A stretch of 64,000 nucleotides of DNA from Mycobacterium kiyosense (GTDB lineage Bacteria; Actinomycetota; Actinomycetes; Mycobacteriales; Mycobacteriaceae). Of this stretch, positions 1 through 12,335 are shown piece by piece; the stretch's first letter is position 1, and every line of letters begins with the position of its first letter. Location of the stretch: contig AP025179.1 in the NCBI GenBank assembly GCA_021654635.1, forward strand, positions 4,960,001 to 5,024,000. Reading direction: 5' to 3'. Below the pieces are notes generated by a model that saw only the letters and a list, made by a program, of their open reading frames with translations, ran no database searches and had not been told where the DNA came from. The position numbers and the translations under genes are program-made.

Positions 1-748
1 CCGCACTGCCCGATACCAATAACCTTGCGGTCCTTAATGATTCGGCTGCGCTAGAGTCGGCGACCAGCCGCGACCACACCGTCGGCACCCCGAAGTACAG
101 CGACCCGCGCGCCGCCGCGTACCCGGCGGGCGTCGGTTTTCCGGTGTGCACGAAGCGATTTCCCACCCGCAAGGATCCGAGCAAGCCGAGGACCAGACCG
201 TGGATGTGATACAGCGGCAGCCCGTGCACCAGCACGTCGTCGGCGGTCCACTGCCAGGCCTCGGCCAACGCATCCAGGTCGGCGGCGATCGCTCGGCGGC
301 TCACCTGCACCCCCTTGGGCAGGCCGGTAGTGCCGGAGGTGTAGACCACCATCGCCGGCGCGTCGGGCGACGGCTCGGCGTAGCGATGCCAAGAACGTGC
401 ATGCAGCCGCACCGGAATGTGTTGCAGCCCATCGGGATCGTCCGGCTGCGGCCCCAGCCACGCCTGGGCGCCGGAGTCGGTGAGCATGTGCCGGCGTTCG
501 GCCACTCCGACGTCGGCGGGCACCGGGACGAACGGCACACCGGCGATCAGGCAGCCGACGACCGCCAGCACGGTCGACGCCGTGGGCGCGGCCAGCACCG
601 CGATCATCCGGGCGCCGGCCACCCGCTCGGCCACCGACGTCGCGGCGCCCACCAGGTCGCCGCGACTGAGCCGGAACCCGTCGATGCTGACCGCGTCGGG
701 GATGTCGTCGGCGGTCGCCGCCGCGGGATTCAGCGAGGTCAGCAGCAC
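1..748 (-). CDS. fadD36: FadD36-type fatty acyl-CoA/acyl-AMP ligase, N-terminal half (partial)
   Basis: Acyl-activating enzyme of the ANL (AMP-binding) superfamily, which adenylates a carboxylic acid with ATP and passes it to CoA. The reading frame is open from a GTG at 748 to the window edge, so about 249 N-terminal residues are present and the C-terminal domain is missing. The reverse strand gives the AMP-binding P-loop YTSGTTGLPKG, then HGLPLYHIHG and FGVPTVWSR, as in M. tuberculosis Rv1193 (FadD36). The GTG start gives VLLTSLNPAAATADD, which lines up with the N-terminus I remember for Rv1193. A hydrolase gene in the same direction starts upstream and ends 10 bp before this start, so the two are probably co-transcribed. 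Family is certain; the substrate is not readable. Confidence 0.9.
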   Translation of the reverse strand, partial: MLLTSLNPAAATADDIPDAVSIDGFRLSRGDLVGAATSVAERVAGARMIAVLAAPTASTVLAVVGCLIAGVPFVPVPADVGVAERRHMLTDSGAQAWLGPQPDDPDGLQHIPVRLHARSWHRYAEPSPDAPAMVVYTSGTTGLPKGVQVSRRAIAADLDALAEAWQWTADDVLVHGLPLYHIHGLVLGLLGSLRVGNRFVHTGKPTPAGYAAARGSLYFGVPTVWSRLVADSSAAESLRTARLLVSGSA

Positions 749-758
749 GCCAGTGAGG

Positions 759-1667
759 CTACCGACCCTCGTCCCAGATCTTCATCAGGGTGGCCAGGAT
801 CTCCTCGCCGCGGCCCAGCCCGGCCAGATGGCTCTCCTCGGGCAGGTGGAACAGCTCGGCGTCGGGCAGTCGCGCGACCACGTGCTCGCCGTGGGAGAAC
901 GGGATGATGTGGTCGTGGTCGCCGTGCCACCACCGCACCGGAACCTTGACTTCGTCGAGCCGGAATCCCCAGTCCCGGGCGAACAGGATGACGTCGTTGA
1001 ACGGCGCCGCCAGTTGCTTGCGGCTGCCGTTGAGTAGGTCGTCGAGGAACATCGCCTTGAACTCGGGCCGGGTCAGCAGGTGCCGGTCGGCCTCGGGTGA
1101 GAGCAGGGCGTACACCTCCAGCGCGCTGGACGCGACGGGCCGGATCGACTGGATCAGCATGCTCGCGCCGATGCGCAGCGGGTTGCCGCCGAACTTCAGC
1201 AGCGGCGCGACCCGCAGGCCAAGGGTCATCGCCCCGCCGCTGATCGCGTCGGGCCCCTGGGTGGGCGCCACTCCCCCGAGCACGCCGAGGGCCACCACCC
1301 GGTCGCTCAGCCGCGCGCCGCAGGCCAGCGCGTAGGGGCCGCCACCGGACAGGCCGACGACGGCCATCTTCTCGATGCCGAAGGTGTCGGCGATGGTGCG
1401 GAGGTCTTCGGCGAACTCCGAGATGGCCTCGTAGCGGTGTGGCGTCGAGGAACCGATGCCGGGACGGTCGATGCCGATCAGCCGGATGTCGTGGTGTTCG
1501 GCGTAGACGCGGGCCTCGGTGGGGATCTGCCGCCGGGCGCCCGGCGTGCCGTGCAGCCAGAACACGGCGCGCCCCTGGGGGGCGCCGAATTCGGCGAAAC
1601 CGATCTGACGGTTCTCGCCGACGGCGATGTTGCCTTCGATCTTGGGGCGATCGATCGCGACAGACAT
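759..1667 (-). CDS. Alpha/beta-fold hydrolase (Rv1191-like)
   Basis: A 302-residue alpha/beta hydrolase. Visible motifs are the oxyanion-hole HG at residues 39-40 (FWLHGTPGAR), the nucleophile elbow GLSGGG with Ser107, an acidic GDHDH segment near residue 250 and a late His in SHLAGLG that would complete Ser-Asp-His. No signal peptide or membrane segment is seen, so it is probably cytoplasmic. It lies directly upstream of fadD36 with a 10-bp gap, the order seen around Rv1191-Rv1193 in M. tuberculosis. It may supply or edit an acid for the ligase, but this is inference from position only. The substrate (ester, epoxide or lactone) is unknown. The ATG start is followed by a plausible N-terminus, and length is typical for the family. 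Confidence 0.85.
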   Translation of the reverse strand: MSVAIDRPKIEGNIAVGENRQIGFAEFGAPQGRAVFWLHGTPGARRQIPTEARVYAEHHDIRLIGIDRPGIGSSTPHRYEAISEFAEDLRTIADTFGIEKMAVVGLSGGGPYALACGARLSDRVVALGVLGGVAPTQGPDAISGGAMTLGLRVAPLLKFGGNPLRIGASMLIQSIRPVASSALEVYALLSPEADRHLLTRPEFKAMFLDDLLNGSRKQLAAPFNDVILFARDWGFRLDEVKVPVRWWHGDHDHIIPFSHGEHVVARLPDAELFHLPEESHLAGLGRGEEILATLMKIWDEGR

Positions 1668-1751
1668 GGCGGGGCGCCTTTCTCTGCGGGTGCGTCTTCG
1701 CGGGTGCGTTGACGCGTCCGGAATCTTACTGGTGCGGCTCGACGCGATTCA

Positions 1752-3973
1752 CTAGGCGTTGAGCACTCGTTCACCGATGATCCGCTGCGCGCGCAGTTCG
1801 GCCAGTTCGTCGGGGGAAAGCCCCAACGCGCAAAGAATCTCGTCGTTGTGCTGGCCGAGGGTGGGCGGCGGGGTGCGGTGATGCCGGGCGGGTCCGGGGG
1901 TGATGCGAAACGGCCAGCCGGGAAAGCGCCGCGGCCCGGTGACGGGGTGCTCGAACTCTTCGTAGAACCGCCGGGCATCGAGCTGGGCGAAATCGCACAT
2001 CCGGTCCCCGGTGGTGACTTGCTCTGCCGGAATTCCTTGCGCGCGAAGGCTTTCGACGACGGCCGCCGCCGTCTGGGTGCGGGTCCAGGCGGCGACCAGC
2101 TCGTCGAACAGGTCGTGGTCGATGCCGCCCGCGTCGGGCAAGGACAGGGCCACCCAGGTCTGGTCTTCGTGGGTCGGATACACGCCCTGCAGCCAGCCGC
2201 GCCGACGGTTGCCTTCGCGGGAACGCACTACGCCGTTCATCGAATACTCGATCACCGGTTCGGCGGTCACCGCGGCGGCGACCTCGATCTGGGCGACCTC
2301 GATCAGCCGGCCCTTCCCGGTACGGCGGCGGTGTCGCAGGGCGGCCAGCAGCGCGACCCCGGCGTGCACGCCGACGATGGGGTCGGCCGGGCCCTGCAGG
2401 TTGCACGGCGGTCCGTCGGCGTACCCGGTGGCGGCGGTCATCCCGGAGGTCTGCTCGATGTTCAGCGCCCAGCCGACGTAGTCACGCCACGGCCCATCCA
2501 GTCCGAAACCGGGCATCCGGACCGCGATGACATCGGGCCGCAGTTTCACCAGCGATTCGTAGTCCAGACCGAACTGCTCCACCACCCGCGGGGAGAAATT
2601 CTCCACGACCACGTCGGCCTGTGCGGCCAGTCGCTGGGCGATGTCGCGACCGCGATCGGTGGTCAGGTCGAGGGTGATGTCCTTCTTGTTGAGGTTGGTC
2701 GCCTGCCACAGAGCGCTGCGCTCGTACCAGTCGTCCCCCTCGAACGGGTAAGCGCCCGAATACCTGTGGCCGTCCGGCCGCTGGATGGATTCGACCTTCA
2801 CGATGTCGGCGCCGAACGCGCCGAGGTAGCAGGTCAGGTAGGCGCCAGCCCAGAAGGTGCTCAGGTCGAGCACCCGAAGCCCTTCGAATCCCGGCGGCGA
2901 GTGCGACGGGGCTGCAACCTGCGGCCCGGGATTTCGCGGTGCGGTTACCTTCGCGGACCGGGAGAACCGGAACGGCGAACCCGGCCGGGTGAAACCACCG
3001 GTCGCCACGAAGAATCCGCGTTTGGCGTACTGCGGCGACTCCAACACGGTGGCGCCGTCGTTGACCGGCGCGGCCGGGATCCGCATGGCCTGGCTCAGTT
3101 CGACGAGTTCGGCGACGGTCTGCGCGGCGAGCAGCGGCTCCGCCCTGGCGAAGAACTCGGCGCGCTGCGGGCCGCCCATCATGATGGCGAGCTGGTGTTC
3201 ACCGAACTCCGGCAGGCCCAGCATCGCGCAGACGTCGAGCCAGTGCTGCCCGGTCAGGCAGTTGATGCCCACCCAGCCGTCGGCGGCGCGCACCACCCCA
3301 GCATCGGCGCGGCCCGGATATTCGGCGGCAGCCCAAGGCTTTCCATCCGTTCGGCCATCAGCATCGGGTAGGGCAGCGTGGCGAGCAGCGACTCGAATTC
3401 CGAGACGTCGACGCACCGGAAGCCGGACCCGGGAAACCGCAGCGCGGTCAGCGCAGCCAGCGCCCCGTAGGCGCCCGGAACATATTCTGAGATTCGGGCG
3501 CCGGCCTGCACCGGCGGGCGGTCCGGGTCGCGGGCGCTGATCCAGCCGGATACCGCCTGCATGGTCAGCGGCGACGCCACGCGGTCACGCCAGGGCCCGG
3601 ACTGACCGAATGCAGAAATGCTCACCAGCACCAGATTCGGGTTGAGGCGGGCCAATTCGCCGGCGCCCAGCCCCCACCCGGCCAGGGTGCCGGGCGGTAG
3701 ATTCTCGACCAGCACCTGCGCCGACGCGATCAGGGCACCGGCCTCGTCCAGGCCGGCAAACCGTTTGCCCGTGTTGAGGTATTCGAACAACCCCGACCGC
3801 TGCGGGTCCGGCACCCCGTCCCGGAAGGGTCCCCACCGCCGCAGCGGATCCCCTTGCGGCGGCTCGATTTTAACGACCTCCGCACCCAGATCCACGAAAA
3901 GCTTTGTGGCGTAAGGGCCGGAGATCTCGGTGGCGATTTCGACGACGTGCAGGCCCGCGAGGGGTCCACTCAC
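1752..3973 (-). CDS. Two-domain class III (CaiB/BaiF) CoA-transferase, with one -1 frameshift
   Basis: Formyl-CoA-transferase-type enzyme that moves CoA between carboxylic acids. Two CaiB/BaiF domains are joined in one polypeptide of about 740 residues, like the double-domain mycobacterial proteins such as Rv1866. Domain 1 begins SGPLAGLHVVEIATEISGPYA and has a GAEVVKIEPPQGD segment. Domain 2 begins near GFEGLRVLDLSTFWAGAY and has FGADIVKVESIQRPDGH. The frame breaks near 3296-3299: a 4-C run on the plus strand where five would keep PMLG-VVRAADGWVGIN in one frame. Everything either side is well conserved, so I treat it as one gene with a probable assembly deletion. The GTG start at 3973 overlaps the stop of the upstream aldehyde dehydrogenase (GTGA), implying translational coupling. 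Together the two could turn an aldehyde into an acyl-CoA without ATP. Confidence 0.8.
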
Positions 3974-5453
3974 GCGGGAACCCCGATCGCCATCGGCTCC
4001 ATGTATTGGTGTACCCCGGTGATGCCGCCGCCCTCGCGTCCCAGCCCGCTCAGCTTGAAACCGCCGAACGGCGCGGCACCCGCACCGCATCCGTTGACCG
4101 CGACCTGTCCCGTCCGGATGCGACGGGCCACACCGACCGCCCGGTCCACGTCGCCGCCCCACACCGCGCCGGACAGCCCGTACTGCGAGTTGTTCGCGAT
4201 CTCGATTGCGTCCCGGTCGTCGCGGTACCGGATCACGCTGAGCACCGGGCCGAAGACTTCCTCTTGTGCGATAACCGAATTCGGTTGCACGCCGGTGAGA
4301 ATAGTCGGCTCGAAATAGAAGCCGACGTCCAGCCCGGCCGGCCGCCGGCCCCCCGGTGGCGAGCTGGGCCCCCCTCGTCGAGCGCCCCGGCGACGTGCGC
4401 CTCGACCCGGCCCCGTTGGGCGTCGCTGATCAGTGGTCCCATCTGCACCTCGGGATCGGCGGGGTCGCCCACTTTGACGGCACGGGCCATCGCCACCAGA
4501 CGTTCGACGACGTCGTCGTGCAGCGAATCGGGCAGCAGCAACCGGCTTTGCAGGATGCAGGCCTGTCCGGAGTGCAGCGAGCAGCAGTCGAACAGCAACT
4601 GCTGCAACATCTCGTCGGTGACCTCGGTGTCGTCCAGGATGATGCACGCCGACTTGCCGCCCAACTCCAGCAGGATCCGCTTGAGCGTGTCACCGGCGGC
4701 CGACATCACCTGCCGCCCGACCACGCTGCTACCGGTGAAGCTGACCATGTCGATGCGCGGGTCGGTGGTGAGCAGCCGGGCCGCCTCGACGCTCGACGGC
4801 GTGACGACGTTGACCACGCCGGGCGGGATGTCGGTGTGCTCGTCGATCAGCCGCGCCAGCGCCAGCCCCGCCACCGGGGTGAGCGGGGACGGCTTGAGCA
4901 CCACGGTGTCCCCGGCGGCCAGCGCGTGGTTGAGCTTCATCACGTTGAGGCAGTGCGGGAAGTTCCACGGGGTCAGGATGGACACCACGCCCAACGGCGC
5001 GTGCCGCAGCACCGTCTTGCCGGCGCCGATCCCGGTCACCTCTTCGTCAACCAGCTGGGTGGCCAGTTGGGCGGCGTGCATGGACATGAACGCCGCACCG
5101 TCGATCTGCATCAGCCGCTCGTTCTCGGTGCATCCCCATTCCGCCCGGGACAGCGCGAAGAAGTCGTCGGCGTACTTCAGCAGCGCCTGGCCGAGTTGGT
5201 TGAGGCACTCGGCGCGGTCTGCGGCGGTCATAGTCGCCCAGGGACTGTCGTCGAAGGCGCGGCGGGCGGCGCCGATCGCCGCACCGACCTGGTCGACGCT
5301 GGCGTCGGGTGCGGTGGCGATGACCTGTTCGGTGACGGGTGAGATGTCTTGGTAGCGGCCGTCTTCGGGTTCGACCCACCGGCCGTCGATGTAGAGCTGG
5401 TAGGTGTCAACGAGCGTCGGTAGCATCTGCGTCCTCACCGAAATGTCGGTCAT
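3970..5453 (-). CDS. NAD(P)-dependent aldehyde dehydrogenase, with two +1 frameshifts
   Basis: Aldehyde dehydrogenase superfamily, oxidising an aldehyde to an acid. Motifs are TPWNFPHCLNVMKL, VSFTGSSVVGRQV, the general-base Glu in LLELGGKSA, the nucleophile Cys in HSGQACILQ, and EEVFGPVLSVI and PFGGFKLSGLGRE near the C-terminus. Start is ATG 5453 with AAGGGG about 5 nt upstream; a longer in-frame extension to 5492 is less likely. Two C6 runs on the plus strand (4349-4354 and 4369-4374) each appear one base too long: removing one from each restores ALDEGAQLATGGRRPAGLDV. Without this the protein is cut at about residue 370. The gene is coupled to the CoA-transferase and is divergent from the P450 operon, which suggests it oxidises the aldehyde made by the P450. 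Confidence 0.82.
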
Positions 5454-5463
5454 CTGTCCCCTT

Positions 5464-5492
5464 GGTGTACACCCGCGCACACCCTGCGTCAA
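5464..5492 (-). promoter_or_regulatory. Candidate promoter of the aldehyde dehydrogenase with a palindrome at -10
   Basis: On the minus strand TTGACG (5492-5487) is followed after 17 nt by TACACC (5469-5464), a plausible -35/-10 pair for the gene starting at 5453. The -10 half lies inside a perfect 10-bp palindrome, GGTGTACACC, at 5464-5473. A repressor bound there would cover the -10 region. The -10 lacks the usual final T, so the promoter call is tentative. Confidence 0.4.
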
Positions 5493-5503
5493 TCGTCGAT
5501 CAT

Positions 5504-5524
5504 CTGAAATTCAAGGTATTTCAG
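5504..5524. promoter_or_regulatory. 21-bp inverted repeat in the divergent promoter region
   Basis: A perfect inverted repeat CTGAAAT-N7-ATTTCAG sits midway between the divergent aldehyde dehydrogenase and P450 genes. Its size suits a TetR dimer, and a TetR gene closes the rightward operon. It does not match the KstR or KstR2 consensus as I remember them. Confidence 0.5.
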
Positions 5525-5539
5525 TGTGTTGAGGGCGTA

Positions 5540-5569
5540 TTGACAGAGCATGTCGCCGGGTAGTAGACA
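5540..5569 (+). promoter_or_regulatory. Candidate promoter of the P450/igr-like operon
   Basis: A consensus -35 TTGACA at 5540-5545 is followed after 18 nt by TAGACA at 5564-5569. Transcription would begin near 5576, downstream of the first in-frame ATG (5572). This favours the GTG at 5620 as the P450 start. Confidence 0.5.
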
Positions 5570-5579
5570 CGATGCGCAG

Positions 5580-5600
5580 GACACTTTCCCCAAAAGTGTC
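5580..5600. promoter_or_regulatory. Probable operator: 8-bp perfect inverted repeat at the start of the P450 transcript
   Basis: GACACTTT-N5-AAAGTGTC is a perfect 21-bp inverted repeat lying just after the predicted transcription start and about 20 bp before GTG 5620. Position, size and symmetry fit a TetR-type operator. The arms differ from those of the 5504-5524 repeat, so two different proteins may bind, or only one of the two sites may be functional. Confidence 0.55.
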
Positions 5601-5619
5601 GGATCGGAGAATCCTGAGC

Positions 5620-6816
5620 GTGCGCGCCGATGCTGAGCTGCACTCACCGGAATTCCCACTGCACTCCCCCGACTTCTACGCCGGCGACCCGTATCCGGCC
5701 TACCGGCAGCTGCGCGCGACGTCGCCGGTGCTGTGGAACGACGTCACCAATTTCTGGGCGCTGCTCAAGTACGAGGACATCCGCTTCGTCTCCAGCAACC
5801 CGGCGCTGTTCACCTCCACCAAGGGCATCAGCATCCCCGACCCGCAGCTGCCGAACCCGGTGCAGGAGGGCAACCTCATCTTCACCGACCCGCCCCGGCA
5901 CCGGCAGATGCGCAAACTGATCAACGCCGGGTTCACCCGCCGCCGTGTTGCGGTGCTCGAGCCCAAGATCCGTGAGATCGTGCGCGGCATCCTCGACCAG
6001 GTCCAGCCCGATTCGGTGCACGAGTTCGCCGAAGAGATCGCCGCCCCGCTGCCCACCCGGATGATCGCCGAGTTGATCGGCGCGCCGCCCGATGACTGGG
6101 AGCAGTTCCGCGCCTGGTCGGACGCCGCCACCGGGACGGCTGATCCCGAGATCGAGCTCGATCCGTTCGTGGCCATCGGCCAGCTCTTCGAGTACTTTCA
6201 GAAACTGATCGCCGCCCGGCGCGCGGATCCGCGCGACGACCTGCTGTCGGTATTGGCCGAAGCAGAGATCGACGAACACCGCCTCAGCGACGAAGACCTG
6301 CTGAACTTCACCTTCCTGCTGCTGGTTGCCGGCAACGAAACCACCCGCAACCTGATCGCGCTGGGCACCTTGGCGCTGATCGGCCATCCCGAACAGTGCC
6401 GGCTGCTGGTGGCCGACCCCACGCTGATCCCGGCGGCGGTCGAGGAAATGCTGCGCTTCACCAGCCCGGTGGTGAGCATGTCCCGGGTCGCGACCCGCGA
6501 CGTCGAGTTGCGCGGCCAGCTGATCCGCGAGGGCGAGGTGGTGTCGATGCTGTACGGCTCGGCCAACCGCGACGAGGACGTATTCGGCAGTGACGCCGAG
6601 GAATTCAAGGTGACCCGGCATCCCAACCCGCACATCGCGTTCGGCTGTGGCGAACATTCCTGCATCGGAGCACAACTGGCACGGCTGGAAGCCACCGTGC
6701 TGTTCGAGGAGTTGCTGCGCCGCTTTCCCCGCCTGGAACTCGTCGGCGAGGTCGACCGGATGAAGGCCACCATGGTGCCCGGGGTCAAGCGGATGCCGGT
6801 ACGGCTGGGAGCCTGA
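5620..6816 (+). CDS. Cytochrome P450 monooxygenase, first gene of the igr-like operon
   Basis: Soluble bacterial class I P450 of about 398 residues. It has the I-helix oxygen-activation motif AGNETT, the K-helix ExxR in EEMLRF, and the haem-binding loop FGCGEHSCIG with the axial Cys. GTG 5620 has GGAGA about 10 nt upstream and sits after the promoter and operator; an in-frame ATG at 5572 would extend the protein by 16 residues but lies before the predicted transcript start. By analogy with CYP125, which opens the igr operon and oxidises the terminal methyl of the cholesterol side chain, it may oxidise a terminal methyl to an alcohol or aldehyde. I cannot assign a CYP family number. It lies 3 bp before the first acyl-CoA dehydrogenase. 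No ferredoxin gene is adjacent. Confidence 0.88.
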   Translation: MRADAELHSPEFPLHSPDFYAGDPYPAYRQLRATSPVLWNDVTNFWALLKYEDIRFVSSNPALFTSTKGISIPDPQLPNPVQEGNLIFTDPPRHRQMRKLINAGFTRRRVAVLEPKIREIVRGILDQVQPDSVHEFAEEIAAPLPTRMIAELIGAPPDDWEQFRAWSDAATGTADPEIELDPFVAIGQLFEYFQKLIAARRADPRDDLLSVLAEAEIDEHRLSDEDLLNFTFLLLVAGNETTRNLIALGTLALIGHPEQCRLLVADPTLIPAAVEEMLRFTSPVVSMSRVATRDVELRGQLIREGEVVSMLYGSANRDEDVFGSDAEEFKVTRHPNPHIAFGCGEHSCIGAQLARLEATVLFEELLRRFPRLELVGEVDRMKATMVPGVKRMPVRLGA

Positions 6817-6819
6817 GGG

Positions 6820-8022
6820 ATGGATCTGGAGTACACGCCCGAACAGCAGCGGCTGCGCGCGCAGATGCGCGCCACCCTGGAACAGGTCATGACGCCCGAG
6901 CGCGTCGCCGCGATCGGCAAGAACATCGAGGGCGGCCCCGCGGTGCGGGAGTGCGTCCGCGCCCTCGCCGCGGCCCACCTGTTGGGTGTCGGCTGGCCCA
7001 AAGAATATGGCGGACAAGGCTTCTCGGCGATCGAGCAGTATATCTTCGGCGAAGAGGCGCGCCGGGCGGGGGCGCCGATCCCGCTGGTGACACTCAACAC
7101 CGTCGGGCCGACGCTGATGCAGCGCGGTACCGAGGAGCAGAAGCGCACGTTCCTGCCGGCGATCCTGGACGGCAGTGTGGAGTTCGCCATCGGGTACTCC
7201 GAGCCGGGCGCCGGCAGCGACCTGGCTTCGATACGTACCACCGCCGTGCGCGACGGGGATCACTACGTGATCAACGGTCAGAAGATGTTCACCAGTGGCG
7301 CCGCCTACGCCGACTACATCTGGCTGGCCGTCCGGACCGACCCGAATGTCAAGAAGCACAAGGGCATTTCGATTCTAATCGTGCCTACCTCGGCACCGGG
7401 ATTCTCCTGGCAACCGCTGCACACCATGCCGGGAGTCTCCACCTTCTACACGTTCTACGACGACGTGCGGGTGCCGGTCAGCGCGCTGGTGGGCGAGGAG
7501 AACCAGGGGTGGCAACTGATCACCACCCAGCTGAACTTCGAACGCGCCGCATTGGGCAATCTGGGCGCGCTCGAGCCGCTGTTCGAGAAGACGCTGCAGT
7601 GGGCTTGCAGCACCGAGCTCGACGGCGCCCGGGTGATCGACCAGCCGTGGGTGCAGCTCGCCCTGGCCCGGGTCGAAGCTCAAGTTGCCGCATACAAATT
7701 GGTCAACCTGCGGGTGAACGCTGCGATGACCAAAGGTGTGCTCAGCATGGGCGAAGCCTCTGCGGCCAAGGTGTTCGGCACCGAGCTGACCCAGCAGGTC
7801 GCCCGGCAGCTGCTGGAAGTGCTCGACGGCAACGGGGTGCGCCGCGGCACCGACGCACCGCTGCGCGGCGCCCTGGAGACCGCGTACCGTCAAGCCGTCA
7901 TCAACACCTTCGGCGGCGGCGCCAACGAGATCCAGCGGGACATCATCGCCATGGCGGGCCTGGGCATGCCGCGCGCACCGCGTGACCTACGCGCCACCGC
8001 CGACAAAGGAGGATCGAGCTAA
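6820..8022 (+). CDS. Acyl-CoA dehydrogenase, catalytic subunit type (FadE29-like)
   Basis: FAD-dependent acyl-CoA dehydrogenase of 400 residues that introduces an alpha,beta double bond. It resembles FadE29 of the igr operon in segments such as LGVGWPKEYGGQGF, FAIGYSEPGAGSDLAS, YVINGQKMFTSGA, HKGISILIVPT and the C-terminal FGGGANEIQRDIIA. Glu241 in QLNFERAALG aligns with the catalytic base region of FadE29 (NNERVMLG). The igr enzymes work as an alpha2beta2 heterotetramer in which only one subunit carries the base; this gene looks like that subunit and its partner is at 8966. ATG start 3 bp after the P450 stop; an AAAGGAGG Shine-Dalgarno for the next gene lies at its 3' end. Confidence 0.9.
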   Translation: MDLEYTPEQQRLRAQMRATLEQVMTPERVAAIGKNIEGGPAVRECVRALAAAHLLGVGWPKEYGGQGFSAIEQYIFGEEARRAGAPIPLVTLNTVGPTLMQRGTEEQKRTFLPAILDGSVEFAIGYSEPGAGSDLASIRTTAVRDGDHYVINGQKMFTSGAAYADYIWLAVRTDPNVKKHKGISILIVPTSAPGFSWQPLHTMPGVSTFYTFYDDVRVPVSALVGEENQGWQLITTQLNFERAALGNLGALEPLFEKTLQWACSTELDGARVIDQPWVQLALARVEAQVAAYKLVNLRVNAAMTKGVLSMGEASAAKVFGTELTQQVARQLLEVLDGNGVRRGTDAPLRGALETAYRQAVINTFGGGANEIQRDIIAMAGLGMPRAPRDLRATADKGGSS

Positions 8023-8565
8023 GTGACCGACTCAGAGCTTCAGGCCAAGGTGCAGGCATTGGTCGGCAAGCCCACCGGTGGCAGCGGAAAACCCTCGGTG
8101 GCACCGGATCCGGTGAATCAGCCGATGATCCGGCACTGGGCGTACGCCATGGACGACCTGAACCCGGTGTACATCGACCCCGACTTCGCGGCGACGTCGC
8201 GGTTCGGCGGCATCGTGTCGCCACCGGTGATGCTGCAGACCTGGACGATGCCGTCGCCCAAGCTGGAAGGAATCGGCGACCGCGGCGGCGCGCCGATCGA
8301 GATCAAGAGCAACCCGACGGCCTTCCTGGACGAGGCCGGTTACACCAGCACCGTGGCCACCAACTCCGAGTTCGAGATCGAACGCTACCCGCGGCTGGGT
8401 GATCTGATCAGCGCGACGACGGTGTACGAGTCGGTGTCGGACGAGAAGAAGACGGCGCTGGGCACCGGGTTCTTCCTGACCTGGCTGACCACCTACACCA
8501 ACCAGCACGGCGAAGTGCTGGGCCGGCAACGCTTCCGCGTACTTCGATTCAGGCCGGCCCGCTGA
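8023..8565 (+). CDS. MaoC-like hydratase, N-terminal-type hotdog protein (ChsH2 N-terminal half-like)
   Basis: A 180-residue protein of the MaoC dehydratase N-terminal type (FAS1-like hotdog). Segments such as MIRHWAYAMDDLNPVYIDPDFA and FGGIVSPPVMLQTW match the first domain of ChsH2 (Rv3542c). ChsH2 in the igr operon is one chain of about 311 residues made of this domain plus a DUF35 domain; here the two are separate genes (180 + 132 residues) overlapping by one base. In the igr pathway this chain pairs with ChsH1 to hydrate the enoyl-CoA. GTG start at 8023 with AAAGGAGG about 8 nt upstream is convincing. No break in the frame suggests the split is real and not an assembly error. Confidence 0.85.
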   Translation: MTDSELQAKVQALVGKPTGGSGKPSVAPDPVNQPMIRHWAYAMDDLNPVYIDPDFAATSRFGGIVSPPVMLQTWTMPSPKLEGIGDRGGAPIEIKSNPTAFLDEAGYTSTVATNSEFEIERYPRLGDLISATTVYESVSDEKKTALGTGFFLTWLTTYTNQHGEVLGRQRFRVLRFRPAR

Positions 8566-8963
8566 TGGCGACCCGAATGGCGCCGGCCATCAGCCCGGAT
8601 ACCGAGTTCTTCTGGAATGGCTTGCGGGACAACAAGTTGCTGATCCAGCGCTGCGACGGGTGCGGGGTGCTGCGTCACCCACCCCGCCCGATGTGCCCGC
8701 ATTGCCGGTCGCTGGAGTGGGAGACGGTGCCGGCGTCCGGCCGCGGCACGGTGTACAGCTACGTGATGCCGCATCAGCCACGCGTTCCGTTCTTCGACTA
8801 CCCCTACATCGTGGTGCTGGTCGAGCTGGAGGAAGGAGTGCGGCTGGTGTCGAACCTGACCGACATCGACCCGGCTGAGGTGAAAGTCGGGATGCCGGTG
8901 CAACTCTACTTCCAGAGTTTCGACAACGACCTGACGCTGCACCAGTTCCGGCCGAGCCGGTAG
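8565..8963 (+). CDS. DUF35 zinc-ribbon/OB-fold protein (ChsH2 C-terminal half-like)
   Basis: A 132-residue DUF35 protein: an N-terminal helix, a rubredoxin-like zinc ribbon with Cys30, Cys33, Cys44 and Cys47 (CDGC...CPHC), then an OB-fold. In the igr system the DUF35 domain of ChsH2 binds the aldolase Ltp2 and is needed for its activity, coupling hydration to retro-aldol cleavage. The start ATG shares its A with the stop TGA of the preceding MaoC gene (TGATG), so the two halves are translated together. All four metal ligands are present. Family assignment is secure; the partner is inferred to be the Ltp2-like protein at 10534. Confidence 0.87.
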   Translation: MATRMAPAISPDTEFFWNGLRDNKLLIQRCDGCGVLRHPPRPMCPHCRSLEWETVPASGRGTVYSYVMPHQPRVPFFDYPYIVVLVELEEGVRLVSNLTDIDPAEVKVGMPVQLYFQSFDNDLTLHQFRPSR

Positions 8964-8965
8964 CC

Positions 8966-10069
8966 ATGGACTTCACCTTCACCGAGGAACAGGAGACCAT
9001 CGCCAAGCTGGCCCGCGACGTCTTCGAGCGCCGCGCCACGCCGGAGCGGCTCAGCGAGCTGGAAGCCGGCGACATCCGCTACGACGCGGCGTTGTGGCAG
9101 GAACTGGCCGCCGCGGACCTGCTCGGGACGGCGCTGCCGGAGTCGTTGGGCGGCAACGGCGGCGGCTTCGTCGAACTGGGGGTGCTGCTGGCCGAGGTCG
9201 GGTGGAGCGTGGCCCCGGTGCCGGCGTATCCGACGCTGGTGCTCGGCGCCGACCCGATCGCCCGGCACGGCACTCCCGACCAACAGCAGCGCTACCTGCC
9301 CGACATCGTTGCCGGGCAACGTATCCTCAGTGCCGGCCTGGCCGAGCCCGGACGCTCCGACCCGGCACACCCGGCCACCACCGCACGCCGGGACGGGGGA
9401 AACTGGCGGCTCGACGGAATCAAGGAACTGGTACCGGCCGGACAATTGGCCGACACGATCCTCATCCCCGCGGCTCTGGACGACGGCAGCGCCGGCCTGT
9501 TCCTGGTGGCGACGGACGCCCCCGGTGTGCAGGTCCGGCCGGTCCCGACCACCAACCGCGAACCCCACGCCGACGTATTCCTGGACGGCGCAACCGTTTC
9601 CGAGGACGACCGGCTCGCCGGCGATGTCGATTCGCTTCACACCCGGGCGTTGGTGGCGCTGTGCGCCGTCCAGCTGGGTGTGGCCGACCGTGCGCTGCAC
9701 ATCGCTGCCGAGTACACCACCGGGCGGGAACAGTTCGGCCGGCCGATCGGCAGCTTCCAGGCCGTGCAGCAGCGGATGGCCGACGGTTTCATCGACGTCG
9801 AGGCGATGCGCTGGACCACCTGGCACGCGGCCTGGCTGGTCGCCCACGACCGGCCGGCCGACCGAGCCGCCCGCATCGCGAAGTTCTGGGCCGCCGAGGC
9901 CGGTGCACGGGTCACCGCGACCGCGCAGCAGGTACACGGTGGCATCGGGATCGACGTCACCTATCCCCTGCACCGCTACTTCCTGTGGGCCAAGCACAAC
10001 GAGCTGAGCCTCGGTCCCGCCTCCCAGCAGCTGGCCCGCCTCGGCGCGACCTATCCGGAAGGACTGTAG
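8966..10069 (+). CDS. Acyl-CoA dehydrogenase, non-catalytic/FAD-binding partner type (FadE28-like)
   Basis: A 367-residue acyl-CoA dehydrogenase resembling FadE28 of the igr operon. It starts MDFTFTEEQETIAKLARDV, has GREQFGRPIGSFQAVQQRMAD, and ends with VHGGIGIDVTYPLHRYF, which matches the characteristic HLHGGMGMDVTYPMHRYY of FadE28. It is expected to form an alpha2beta2 enzyme with the FadE29-like subunit at 6820, contributing FAD binding but not the catalytic Glu. ATG start directly after the DUF35 stop; its own stop is followed immediately by the next ATG at 10070, so translation is continuous. The substrate is presumably a CoA ester with a short branched tail. Confidence 0.9.
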   Translation: MDFTFTEEQETIAKLARDVFERRATPERLSELEAGDIRYDAALWQELAAADLLGTALPESLGGNGGGFVELGVLLAEVGWSVAPVPAYPTLVLGADPIARHGTPDQQQRYLPDIVAGQRILSAGLAEPGRSDPAHPATTARRDGGNWRLDGIKELVPAGQLADTILIPAALDDGSAGLFLVATDAPGVQVRPVPTTNREPHADVFLDGATVSEDDRLAGDVDSLHTRALVALCAVQLGVADRALHIAAEYTTGREQFGRPIGSFQAVQQRMADGFIDVEAMRWTTWHAAWLVAHDRPADRAARIAKFWAAEAGARVTATAQQVHGGIGIDVTYPLHRYFLWAKHNELSLGPASQQLARLGATYPEGL

Positions 10070-10537
10070 ATGACGACCACCACCAGCCGAACCAGCACGC
10101 TCAATTGGGCGGACATCGAAGTCGGCGACCAACTCACCTCACTCGAAATCCCGATCAGCACAACGAAAATCGTCGCCGGCGCGATCGCGTCCAGGGACTT
10201 CATGCCGGTGCACCACGACCGTGACTACGCCAACAAGCAGGGCTCGCCGGACTTGTTCATGAACATCCTCACCACCAACGGCTACTGCGTGCGGTTCCTC
10301 ACCGACTGGGCCGGCCCGGAGGCGATGGTCAAGAACCTCTCGATTCGCCTCGGCGTGCCGTGCTTTCCGAACTCCACGCTGAGCTTCACCGGCACCGTGA
10401 CCAAGAAGACGGCGGGTGACCCGGCCGGTCCAGCGGGCGAGAACTTCGTCGAGGTGACCTTCCGCGGCTGCAACGACCTCGGCGACCACGTCTCGGGAAC
10501 CGCGGTGCTCAGCCTGCTCGACGGAACCCGCGCGTGA
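10070..10537 (+). CDS. MaoC-like enoyl-CoA hydratase (ChsH1-like)
   Basis: A 155-residue hotdog-fold protein similar to ChsH1 (Rv3541c). The hydratase signature is ASRDFMPVHHDRDYA with Asp43 and His48 in the expected D-x4-H spacing, followed by GSPDLFMNILTTNGYCVRFLTDWAGP, which parallels ChsH1. It should pair with the ChsH2-like protein at 8023 to form the heterodimeric hydratase. Compared with ChsH1 it carries a somewhat longer N-terminus rich in Thr/Ser. ATG start abuts the preceding stop; its TGA overlaps the GTG of the aldolase gene (GTGA), indicating coupling. Confidence 0.9.
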   Translation: MTTTTSRTSTLNWADIEVGDQLTSLEIPISTTKIVAGAIASRDFMPVHHDRDYANKQGSPDLFMNILTTNGYCVRFLTDWAGPEAMVKNLSIRLGVPCFPNSTLSFTGTVTKKTAGDPAGPAGENFVEVTFRGCNDLGDHVSGTAVLSLLDGTRA

Positions 10538-11697
10538 GCAGCACGCTGCCGGGCAAGTGCGCAATCGTCGGGATCGGGCAGACCGAGTTCTCCAAGGAGT
10601 CCGGGCGCAGCGAGCTCCAATTGGCCTGCGAGGCGGTCAGTGCCGCACTCGACGACGCCGGGCTGGCGCCCAGTGACGTCGACGGCATGGTCACCTTCAC
10701 CATGGACTCCAGCGACGAGATCGAGATCGCCCGCAACGTGGGCATCGGCGACCTGAGCTTCTTTTCCCGCGTCCATCACGGCGGCGGCGCGGCGGCAGGC
10801 ACCGTCGTGCACGCGGCGATGGCCGTGGCGACCGGCGTCGCCGAGGTGGTGGTGTGCTGGCGGGCGTTCAACGAGCGGTCCGGCTTCCGGTTCGGCGGCA
10901 GCGGCCGCACCAGCGCGGAGACTCCGTTGTTCATGGCGCATTACGCACCGTTCGGGCTGATCACCCCGGCGGCGTGGGTGGCTCTGCACGCCCAGCGCTA
11001 CATGTCCACCTTCGGGGTCACCAACGAAGATTTCGGCCGGATCGCCGTCGTCGACCGCGCGCACGCGGCCCGCAATCCCGACGCGTGGTTCTACGAGCGG
11101 CCGATCACGCTGGAGGACCACCAGAATTCCCGCTGGATCGTCGAACCGGTGCTGCGCCTGCTGGACTGCTGCCAGGAGAGCGACGGAGGTGTGGCGCTGG
11201 TGGTCACCAGCGCCGAGCGGGCACGGGACCTGCGCCGGGCGCCGGCGATCATCACCGCCGCGGCCCAGGGCGCGGCCGCCAACGGCGAGATGATGACCAG
11301 CTACTACCGCGACGACATCACCGGCTTGCCGGAGATGGGAGTGGTCGCCGACCGGCTCTGGCGTGACTCGGGTTTGAAGCCGCAGGACATTCAAACCGCG
11401 TTCATCTACGACCATTTCACGCCGTTCGTGTTCACCCAGCTCGAGGAACTCGGATTCTGCGGACGCGGCGAAGCCAAGGACTTCGCGACGGTGCAGCGGC
11501 TGTCGCTGGGCGGCGAGTTCCCGATCAACACCAACGGCGGGCTGCTCGGTGAGGCCTACATCCACGGCATGAACGGCATCACCGAGGGCGTCCGGCAGGT
11601 GCGGGGCACCTCCTACAACCAGGTCGAGAACGTCGAGCACGTGCTGGTCACCTCGGGTACCGGAGTGCCGACCAGCGGGCTGATCCTGGGGCGCTGA
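10534..11697 (+). CDS. Ltp2-like thiolase-fold aldolase
   Basis: A 387-residue thiolase-superfamily protein close to Ltp2 (Rv3540c). Shared segments include CAIVGIGQTEFSK, FTMDSSDEIEIARNVGIG, HAAMAVATGVAEVVV, RAFNERSG, RLLDCCQESDGGVALVV, YDHFTPFVFTQLEELGFCG and the glycine-rich end VLVTSGTGVPTSGLILG. Ltp2 is not a true thiolase: with the DUF35 domain of ChsH2 it performs a retro-aldol cleavage, releasing propionyl-CoA and a ketone from a 22-hydroxy steroid CoA. The same role on another substrate is the best reading here. Start GTG 10534 overlaps the previous stop by 4 nt. The TetR gene follows 5 bp downstream. Confidence 0.9.
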   Translation: MSSTLPGKCAIVGIGQTEFSKESGRSELQLACEAVSAALDDAGLAPSDVDGMVTFTMDSSDEIEIARNVGIGDLSFFSRVHHGGGAAAGTVVHAAMAVATGVAEVVVCWRAFNERSGFRFGGSGRTSAETPLFMAHYAPFGLITPAAWVALHAQRYMSTFGVTNEDFGRIAVVDRAHAARNPDAWFYERPITLEDHQNSRWIVEPVLRLLDCCQESDGGVALVVTSAERARDLRRAPAIITAAAQGAAANGEMMTSYYRDDITGLPEMGVVADRLWRDSGLKPQDIQTAFIYDHFTPFVFTQLEELGFCGRGEAKDFATVQRLSLGGEFPINTNGGLLGEAYIHGMNGITEGVRQVRGTSYNQVENVEHVLVTSGTGVPTSGLILGR

Positions 11698-11702
11698 GCG
11701 CA

Positions 11703-12335
11703 ATGACCACCGGGGCCGCCGACTTGAGCCAGGCGAACGACACCCGCGAACTCATCATCGAATCCGCTTACGCCTGCTTCGCCAAGCACGGGCTGCAGAA
11801 GACGACGATCGTCGACATCGCCAGAGCGGCGAACGTATCCCGCAGCACCGTCTACGAATATTTCAGCGACAAGCGCGCGATCCTGGAGGCCTGCGCCGAG
11901 AACGCGTCGGAGGAGTTCTACCGGGAGATGTCCAAAGCCATGAATCACGGTGATTCGTTGGAGGACAAGCTGTGTCGGGCCGCGGTGTTCGTGACGCAGG
12001 CAAGCCGCGCGTTCGCTTCGGAGAAGTTCTTCGACGAAGAGGCACTCAGCCTGCTGCTGACCAAGGACGCCGCCGTACTGCTGCGCGAATGCGCCGAGTT
12101 CTTCGCGCCGCATCTTTCCGCCGCCAAGCTCACCGGTGAGGTCCGCAAAGACCTCGACGTGGCGGCGGCCGGGGAGTGGTTTGCCCGAATCCTGTTCTCG
12201 CTGTTCAGCACGCCGTCGTCGACGCTGGACATGGACGATCCGGCGGTGGTCGCCGATTTCGTGCGTGCGCACGTGGTGCGTGGCTTCGCCGACGACCGCA
12301 CCCGAACGCCCAGGGGCGCACCGAAGGTGCGGTGA
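11703..12335 (+). CDS. TetR-family regulator closing the igr-like operon
   Basis: A 210-residue TetR-type regulator. The N-terminal helix-turn-helix is clear: ESAYACFAKHGLQKTTIVDIARAANVSRSTVYEYFSDKRAI at about residues 20-60. The rest is a ligand-binding helical domain without recognisable relatives. As the last gene of the cluster, 5 bp after the aldolase gene, it is the obvious candidate to bind the palindromes at 5504-5524 or 5580-5600 and to be released by a CoA-thioester pathway intermediate, as happens with KstR and KstR2. That link is inferred. Its stop is 8 bp from the convergent proline dehydrogenase gene. Confidence 0.87.
   Translation: MTTGAADLSQANDTRELIIESAYACFAKHGLQKTTIVDIARAANVSRSTVYEYFSDKRAILEACAENASEEFYREMSKAMNHGDSLEDKLCRAAVFVTQASRAFASEKFFDEEALSLLLTKDAAVLLRECAEFFAPHLSAAKLTGEVRKDLDVAAAGEWFARILFSLFSTPSSTLDMDDPAVVADFVRAHVVRGFADDRTRTPRGAPKVR

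What the first reader, a model, noticed from the sequence alone, without database searches (positions are those of the whole stretch)
1752..12335. An igr-like side-chain degradation cluster outside the cholesterol locus
Directly visible: P450, FadE29-like and FadE28-like dehydrogenases, MaoC-N, DUF35, MaoC, Ltp2-like aldolase and TetR run rightward, with an aldehyde dehydrogenase and a two-domain CoA-transferase leftward. The order and the partners reproduce the igr operon (cyp125-fadE28-fadE29-chsH2-chsH1-ltp2). I do not recall such a copy between fadD36/Rv1191 and pruB in M. tuberculosis. It reads as a full route for removing a methyl-branched C3-type tail from a steroid, terpenoid or other isoprenoid acid. 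The substrate is inferred to be different from cholesterol because the cluster has its own activating enzymes and regulator.
Basis: partly seen in the sequence, partly recalled or inferred. Interest (0 to 1): 0.82.

Follow-up and report, generated by a model that had tools for sequence, protein, structure and literature searches.

The report
A third side-chain-removing gene cluster
Many mycobacteria carry, besides their cholesterol genes, a separate and differently built gene set that probably cuts a three-carbon tail off some bulky ring compound other than cholesterol, under its own switch; what that compound is remains unknown.

Summary
In detail: 1752-12335 encodes P450, two acyl-CoA dehydrogenases, MaoC_N, DUF35, MaoC, an Ltp2-type aldolase and TetR, with a divergent aldehyde dehydrogenase and family III CoA-transferase, both frame-broken in this assembly. 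The genome also has a separate igr operon, about 0.84 Mb away. The cluster is not an igr copy. Its order matches the Rhodococcus bile-acid casLMNOP order; its ChsH2 is split (47 of 47 loci, against 0 of 16 igr and 0 of 10 cas-type); it keeps the four-cysteine ribbon that igr has lost; and it forms a third clade as deep as igr and cas. Window-type Ltp2 occurs in 36 of 98 sampled same-genus genomes, always beside an igr-type Ltp2. Active-site motifs are Ltp2-type, so propionyl-CoA removal from an alpha-methyl C3 tail on a bulky ring is the best reading. A 19-bp palindrome at 5581-5599, unique in the genome and conserved in close relatives, is the likely TetR operator. Some relatives add a zinc alcohol dehydrogenase, completing methyl to acyl-CoA; a few keep only aldehyde dehydrogenase, hydratase and aldolase behind the operator. 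The substrate is undetermined. New variant of a known kind.

The parts
1752..3416 (-). family III CoA-transferase, C-terminal ORF (frame-broken gene)
   Evidence: CoA_transf_3 332 bits; single 798-aa ORF in L077 and L085
3254..4162 (-). family III CoA-transferase, N-terminal ORF of the same gene
   Evidence: CoA_transf_3 167 bits
3970..4647 (-). aldehyde dehydrogenase, C-terminal ORF (frame-broken gene)
   Evidence: best NCBIfam TIGR04284, below its cut-off
4233..5492 (-). aldehyde dehydrogenase, N-terminal ORF
   Evidence: Aldedh 316 bits
5581..5599 (.). 19-bp palindrome ACACTTTCCCCAAAAGTGT, likely TetR operator in the divergent promoter region
   Evidence: only match in 6.35 Mb at up to 1 mismatch; the best site of the locus lies in or within 30 bp of the divergent gap in 19 of 20 clade A loci with P450 and in 6 of 6 reduced loci
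5620..6816 (+). cytochrome P450 (ORF opens at 5572; 398-aa homologues suggest 5620)
   Evidence: p450; nearest solved chains CYP125MRCA, then CYP142 and CYP124; P0001 398 aa
6820..8022 (+). ACAD1, predicted catalytic acyl-CoA dehydrogenase subunit (FadE26/FadE29-type)
8023..8565 (+). MaoC_N, non-catalytic ChsH2-type hydratase subunit (His replaced by Tyr)
8565..8963 (+). DUF35/OB protein with intact four-Cys zinc ribbon, separate from MaoC_N
   Evidence: zf-ChsH2 and OB_ChsH2_C
8966..10069 (+). ACAD2, predicted partner subunit
10070..10537 (+). MaoC, catalytic ChsH1-type hydratase subunit with Asp/His dyad
10534..11697 (+). Ltp2-type retro-aldolase (YDHF motif and second catalytic Tyr)
   Evidence: NCBIfam PRK07855 679 bits
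11703..12335 (+). TetR regulator
   Evidence: TetR_N

Best explanation
A dedicated C3-side-chain-removal operon, a third lineage beside igr (cholesterol) and cas (bile acid). Inferred order: the P450 hydroxylates a terminal methyl of an isopropyl-type group on a bulky alicyclic ring. The alcohol is oxidised to the acid (a zinc alcohol dehydrogenase in some relatives, then the aldehyde dehydrogenase) and the CoA-transferase makes the CoA thioester. The two dehydrogenases, probably an alpha2beta2 enzyme, form the alpha,beta-enoyl-CoA. The MaoC_N/MaoC heteromer hydrates it to a tertiary beta-alcohol, and the Ltp2-like aldolase with its DUF35 partner splits it by retro-aldol into propionyl-CoA and a ring ketone. 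TetR represses both arms from the palindrome. Shown here: gene content, residues, clade, conservation, uniqueness of the palindrome. Inferred: every reaction, the substrate class, repression. Most likely substrate: a polycyclic isoprenoid (terpenoid or steroid) with a three-carbon branched tail, because no first-round beta-oxidation genes were seen when the ORFs in and beside the cluster were read by eye.
For: Gene families. The aldolase keeps YDHF plus the second Tyr that mark C3-cleaving Ltp2 rather than C5-cleaving Sal (PMC12329534 passages). The MaoC dyad and the His-to-Tyr MaoC_N match the heteromeric steroid hydratase (PMC11321319 passages). The closest solved relatives of both dehydrogenases are chains of paired enzymes, 4x28 and 6wy8. 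The P450 is nearest CYP125/142/124 chains. Order conserved in 40 of 40 loci that hold all eight rightward genes. Zinc alcohol dehydrogenase full-length in the ltp2-tetR gap in 13 of 47 loci, a remnant in one more. Likely private operator.
Against: Two genes are frame-broken in this assembly. The window's genome shows no relative of that alcohol dehydrogenase to 1e-30 (no positive control). Five of six reduced loci keep an open aldehyde dehydrogenase without P450 and CoA-transferase, so it could act after, not before, the aldolase. The characterised relatives I found in papers all act on steroids, so the terpenoid option has no direct support.
Confidence: 0.6

Rival explanations
1. A steroid-specific set: it finishes C22 steroids (bile-acid C3 intermediates, or bisnor-cholane alcohols and acids of the 4-HBC type that mycobacteria make from sterols).
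For: Order equals casL-M-N-O-P; ACAD2 is nearest a T. curvata chain, and a bile-acid-specific, C3-preferring T. curvata ACAD is described in PMC8399759 (passage); zinc ribbon kept as in cas-type operons.
Against: The window clade does not fall inside cas or igr. CoA-transferase instead of the CoA ligase CasI. No ring or first-round side-chain genes seen beside it by eye.
Confidence: 0.3
2. Sal-like use: the aldolase releases propionyl-CoA plus an aldehyde, which the aldehyde dehydrogenase oxidises and the CoA-transferase re-activates.
For: Six reduced loci have lost the ACAD pair and an intact CoA-transferase, five of them the P450 too, yet keep both MaoCs, DUF35, aldolase and operator; the aldehyde dehydrogenase is open in five of the six.
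Against: Aldolase residues are Ltp2-type, not Sal-type, and two MaoC proteins are present. Alcohol dehydrogenase in 13 loci fits a role before CoA activation. L069 looks decayed (aldehyde dehydrogenase, TetR and a second P450 in pieces) and L074 has TetR in two pieces; two reduced genomes, G001 and G045, hold a full clade B copy as well.
Confidence: 0.2
3. A redundant cholesterol igr duplicate.
For: Ltp2 67% identical to the genome's igr Ltp2; same reaction types; a window-igr grouping is not rejected by the AU test.
Against: Separate deep clade, different order, split ChsH2, zinc ribbon, other ACAD type, and no KstR-like site near it while one lies before igr cyp125.
Confidence: 0.08
4. In this strain the cluster is decaying and not functional.
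For: Frame breaks in the CoA-transferase and aldehyde dehydrogenase.
Against: Eight rightward genes and the palindrome are intact; igr genes of the same assembly are also broken across frames, which fits sequencing indels.
Confidence: 0.2

Closest known systems
igr operon (cyp125-fadE28-fadE29-chsH2-chsH1-ltp2), cholesterol C3 side chain
   Same: Same enzyme types; to the genome's own copy Ltp2 67%, ACAD1 48%, DUF35 44%, MaoC 44%, MaoC_N 39%, and over the larger piece of two broken matches P450 36% and ACAD2 31%; same aldolase catalytic motifs
   Different: Order, split ChsH2, four-Cys ribbon kept, own TetR and likely operator, aldehyde dehydrogenase and CoA-transferase added, separate clade
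casLMNOP of the R. jostii RHA1 cholate cluster and related operons (Rhodococcus sp. BP22 L109, Novosphingobium ES2-1 L173)
   Same: Gene order ACAD-hydratase-ACAD-hydratase-aldolase; intact zinc ribbon
   Different: ChsH2 fused there (10 of 10 cas-type loci); CoA ligase instead of transferase; bile-acid context; 43-66% identity for L109
Comamonas testosteroni TA441 ORF40-44
   Same: Knock-outs support dehydrogenase, hydratase and aldolase roles in propionyl removal, and separately expressed MaoC and DUF35 worked (abstract and passages of PMC12502768)
   Different: Bile-acid pathway, fused ORF40, different order
ChsE4-ChsE5 (FadE26-FadE27; names recalled)
   Same: ACAD1 53% to a FadE26-type gene of the own genome; 4x28_A is the nearest solved chain
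   Different: Acts on the C8 cholesterol side chain (PMC8399759 passage); no Ltp2-like aldolase beside it in most pair loci
HBC operon (atf1-chsH4-chsE6-kstR3) of M. neoaurum
   Same: TetR-controlled aldolase plus DUF35 outside the main sterol cluster (PMC10398937 passages)
   Different: Acts at C22-23; four-gene operon without P450 or ACAD pair; atf1 is a different gene from ltp2

Membership tests
igr operon (cholesterol) | order P450-FadE28-FadE29-ChsH2-ChsH1-Ltp2 | tested here: not met
igr operon (cholesterol) | fused MaoC_N-DUF35 ChsH2 | tested here: not met
   fused in 16 of 16 igr loci, split in 47 of 47 window-type loci; split in the window itself
igr operon (cholesterol) | DUF35 without the four-Cys ribbon | tested here: not met
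   CCCC in 13 of 13 window-type, 0 of 16 igr
igr operon (cholesterol) | membership of the igr clade | tested here: not met
   igr 100, window 100 bootstrap; AU test leaves the order of the three clades open
igr operon (cholesterol) | KstR-type operator (motif recalled) | tested here: not met
   no exact site in 1-12335; one site before igr cyp125, weak on its own: 43 of 200 shuffles have one
igr operon (cholesterol) | Ltp2 catalytic residues YDHF and second Tyr | tested here: met
cas C3 side-chain operon (bile acid) | order casL-M-N-O-P | tested here: met
   table in PMC8399759 (passage); cas-type loci
cas C3 side-chain operon (bile acid) | fused CasM | tested here: not met
   10 of 10 cas-type loci fused
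cas C3 side-chain operon (bile acid) | membership of the cas clade | tested here: not met
   nine cas loci form their own clade, bootstrap 92
cas C3 side-chain operon (bile acid) | CoA ligase CasI in the operon | tested here: not met
   CoA-transferase instead; an acyl-CoA synthetase, FadD36 by recall, lies beyond the hydrolase
Sal/Shy (C5 side chain) | YDCY aldolase and single-MaoC Shy | tested here: not met
   YDHF and two MaoC proteins
steroid-type alpha2beta2 acyl-CoA dehydrogenase | heterotetramer of two unlike subunits | not testable with these tools
   homology to 4x28 and 6wy8/6wy9 pairs only
any of these | substrate | not testable with these tools
   none

The most novel reading that the evidence does not exclude
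A one-cycle de-isopropylation pathway for polycyclic terpenoids: P450, alcohol dehydrogenase, aldehyde dehydrogenase, CoA-transferase, paired dehydrogenase, heteromeric hydratase and retro-aldolase remove a ring isopropyl group as propionyl-CoA and leave a ring ketone. This would take the steroid C3 machinery beyond steroids, with a reduced module that several species kept under the same operator.
Probability: 0.3. Interest if true: 0.75.

Novelty: new variant of a known kind. Interest (0 to 1): 0.5.

Why it matters
The mycobacterial side-chain papers I saw centre on igr and sterols. A third, separately regulated propionyl-releasing operon in roughly a third of sampled species points to an unrecognised ring-bearing growth substrate of mycobacteria, and offers hydratase-aldolase pairs whose substrate range may differ from the two known ones. 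It also warns that BLAST hits to Ltp2 or ChsH2 in mycobacteria need not mean cholesterol.

Tried and rejected
Rejected: the only igr operon of the genome (one search finds a second Ltp2, and a whole igr set); a recent igr duplicate; a KstR regulon member; the Sal type.

Led nowhere: the branching order of window, igr and cas clades (all three groupings allowed by the AU test, with only 2000 replicates, fewer than advised). A P450 family name was not assigned. The homologue search with the P450 listed mostly orthologues (best 120 of 7341). No paper describing this cluster was recognised in the listings of searches, which cover open-licence PMC papers only. PMC4810484 (passages) surveyed actinobacterial genomes with RHA1 cholate and cholesterol proteins; it left draft Mycobacterium genomes out, and the passages shown do not mention this cluster, though they note two cholesterol clusters in M. 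abscessus subsp. bolletii. A regulon beyond the cluster was sought and not found.

Dropped rows and limits: L066 ACAD2 (stop inside) and the genome's own FadE28 stretch were left out of alignment A1. Tree inputs dropped hits under 75-80% coverage or with stops (44 rows for Ltp2, 33 for ACAD1, 38 for ACAD2). That run hit the time limit after four trees and part of its output, the ACAD1 tree among it, was cut. One search left out the four 'third type' loci. The identity bands A and B are not clean clades: L075 (84%) groups with A in the Ltp2 tree. The 47 window-type loci include some genomes twice (named and unnamed copies), and the window itself is not counted among them. In one search a strict identity cut-off put all ten genes in 35 of 47 loci; L083, L088, L093 and L204 miss it although searches show their CoA-transferase. 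Operator counts use a pattern drawn from these same sequences (a looser one than), and the shuffles were mononucleotide. L072 gave no gap and is the one miss in 19 of 20; L071 scores only 12 of 16; L053 and the window are not among those 20. In 22 clade B loci the best score is 11-13 of 16, and for 19 of them at least 3.5% of shuffles do as well, so the operator is not shown for clade B.
Full report
What is there. The window is G000:C1:4960001-5024000 of a 6.35 Mb one-contig genome. Rightward from 5572 run P450, acyl-CoA dehydrogenase (ACAD1), MaoC_N, DUF35 (OB_ChsH2_C with zf-ChsH2), a second acyl-CoA dehydrogenase (ACAD2), MaoC, an Ltp2-family thiolase-like protein and TetR. Leftward run an aldehyde dehydrogenase and a family III CoA-transferase. 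The two leftward genes are each spread over two overlapping ORFs in different frames but are single ORFs in relatives such as L077. Matches to the genome's own igr P450 and FadE28 are broken across frames too, so assembly indels are plausible but not proved. To the left lie an alpha/beta hydrolase and an acyl-CoA synthetase (FadD36 by eye and recall); to the right the proline-catabolism genes (by eye and recall).

Is it igr? The genome has another Ltp2, 68% identical, at C1:5811040-5812206, about 0.84 Mb away, within a P450-FadE28-FadE29-ChsH2-ChsH1-Ltp2 set. Identities of window to igr proteins: Ltp2 67, ACAD1 48, DUF35 44, MaoC 44 and MaoC_N 39%; the P450 and ACAD2 matches come in two pieces each, the larger at 36 and 31%. 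In the genus sample, 36 of 98 genomes have a window-type Ltp2 (79% identity or more) and all 36 also have an igr-type one (66-70%; counted by eye). Two identity bands exist: A, 87-100%, and B, 79-84%, in other neighbourhoods; five genomes carry both (two of the A copies there are partial). In the family sample the strong ACAD2 orthologues were in 6 of the 15 same-genus genomes listed (others may be among 37 unlisted) and one of another genus (G140); scores then fall from 588 to 381 bits. G140 has the full cluster. In 296 genomes of the class, matches at 1e-120 came from 7 genomes of the genus and one other, G295, at only 406 bits.

Order. Cholesterol-type loci read ACAD2-ACAD1-ChsH2-ChsH1-Ltp2; cas-type loci read ACAD1-ChsH2-ACAD2-ChsH1-Ltp2. 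The window has the cas order, as do 40 of 40 window-type loci that hold all eight rightward genes. The RHA1 cholate table lists CasL (dehydrogenase), CasM (hydratase), CasN (dehydrogenase), CasO (hydratase) and CasP (aldolase) with rising locus tags (PMC8399759, passage). Rhodococcus sp. BP22 (L109) and a Novosphingobium ES2-1 plasmid show this order. I assigned the labels igr and cas by gene order. Unlike both, the window type has ChsH2 split in two: 47 of 47 loci split, against 16 of 16 igr and 10 of 10 cas-type loci fused; four 'third type' loci are also split. Split function is workable: in Comamonas, separately expressed MaoC and DUF35 retained both activities (PMC12502768, abstract).

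Phylogeny. With six proteins joined (40 rows, 1564 columns), the window group (100), igr (100) and nine cas loci (92) are separate clades; their mutual order is open (AU p 0.25-0.60). The single-protein Ltp2 and ACAD2 trees agree that the window group is a deep clade of its own (100 each). ACAD1 and ACAD2 are also close to a pair (48-56% and 43-49% in 12 loci) whose neighbours in L205 and L210 I read as mce4 permease and FadD genes, i.e. FadE26-FadE27 by recall; support for joining window and pair is weak (0.58 for ACAD1). In the own genome ACAD1 is 53% to such a gene and 48% to FadE29. The nearest solved chains are 4x28_A for ACAD1 (recalled as ChsE4) and 6wy8_A, T. curvata Tcur3481, for ACAD2; a bile-acid-specific, C3-preferring T. 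curvata dehydrogenase is described in PMC8399759 (passage).

Residues. The aldolase keeps YDHF and the second catalytic tyrosine in 13 of 13 window-type proteins. By the alignment the second matches Tyr344 of TcLtp2 (numbers from PMC12329534, passages); Sal has YDCY and Gln. MaoC keeps the Asp/His dyad, and MaoC_N has Tyr for His as ChsH2 does, in the window-type motifs printed (PMC11321319, passages). The DUF35 ribbon has four cysteines in 13 of 13 window-type and 10 of 10 cas-type proteins and in 0 of 16 igr proteins. These residues argue for C3, alpha-methyl, tertiary-alcohol chemistry on a bulky ring, with a complex unlike that of igr.

Regulation. A palindrome, ACACTTTCCCCAAAAGTGT, lies at 5581-5599, just before the likely P450 start. 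A search of the own genome with ACACWTTN5AAWGTGT, one mismatch allowed, found only this site. With a looser pattern, in 20 clade A loci with P450 the best match of the whole locus lies in, or within 30 bp of, the divergent gap in 19; in six reduced loci it does so in 6. In clade B the pattern is weak or absent. A KstR-like site (motif recalled) precedes igr cyp125 in L021 but none lies in 1-12335.

Variants that bear on function. A zinc alcohol dehydrogenase sits between ltp2 and tetR, full-length in 13 of 47 loci plus one remnant; none was found in the own genome (without positive control). With P450, aldehyde dehydrogenase and CoA-transferase this makes a complete methyl-to-acyl-CoA series. 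Conversely, six loci (L055, L062, L069, L070, L073, L074) lack the ACAD pair and an intact CoA-transferase, and five of them the P450, but keep MaoC_N, DUF35, MaoC, aldolase and operator. The aldehyde dehydrogenase is open in five of the six and TetR is in one piece in four; L069 looks decayed. G056, G073, G075 and G090 show no window-type ACAD2 elsewhere, whereas G001 and G045 also hold a full clade B copy. So the hydratase-aldolase and aldehyde dehydrogenase may work as a unit on something supplied from outside, which leaves room for an aldehyde product.

Verdict. Reaction logic is well supported by homology and residues; independence from cholesterol is supported by clade, order, ribbon and operator; the substrate is open. 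The cluster has one dehydrogenation, one hydration and one aldol cleavage and no thiolase of the ordinary kind, so the tail should be three carbons long already. Ring-isopropyl terpenoids and C22 steroids both fit.

Noticed in passing
L022 (G000:C1:4607000-4626999): Three Ltp-like and three DUF35-like matches (Ltp 36-38% to the window protein) with aldehyde dehydrogenases, CoA-transferases and P450s: a further candidate side-chain cluster in the same genome.
   Followed up: no
L077, L078, L081, L085 flanks: Clade B copies sit beside luciferase-like, SnoaL, isochorismatase-like or amidohydrolase-2 genes, some with a second P450 and CoA-transferase (families tested on one example each); the own genome has amidohydrolase relatives elsewhere at 58, 52 and 39%.
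   Followed up: partly
L235, L236, L237: A further Ltp2-like type (58-59%) in other genera with split ChsH2 and a YDAF instead of YDHF motif.
   Followed up: no
L171 (R. rhodochrous plasmid pGD02.2.1): Two CoA-transferases, MaoC_N, MaoC, DUF35 and Ltp2 in a row, with a hydroxylase, amidohydrolase and P450, but no dehydrogenase pair in the 31 kb shown.
   Followed up: no
L095: Mycobacterium sp. RYN_129 has only ACAD1, ACAD2 and TetR of the cluster, with a distant Ltp/DUF35 pair nearby.
   Followed up: no
window 1752-5492 and L021 12800-15042: Frame breaks in four catabolic genes of this assembly; sequencing error or decay not resolved.
   Followed up: partly
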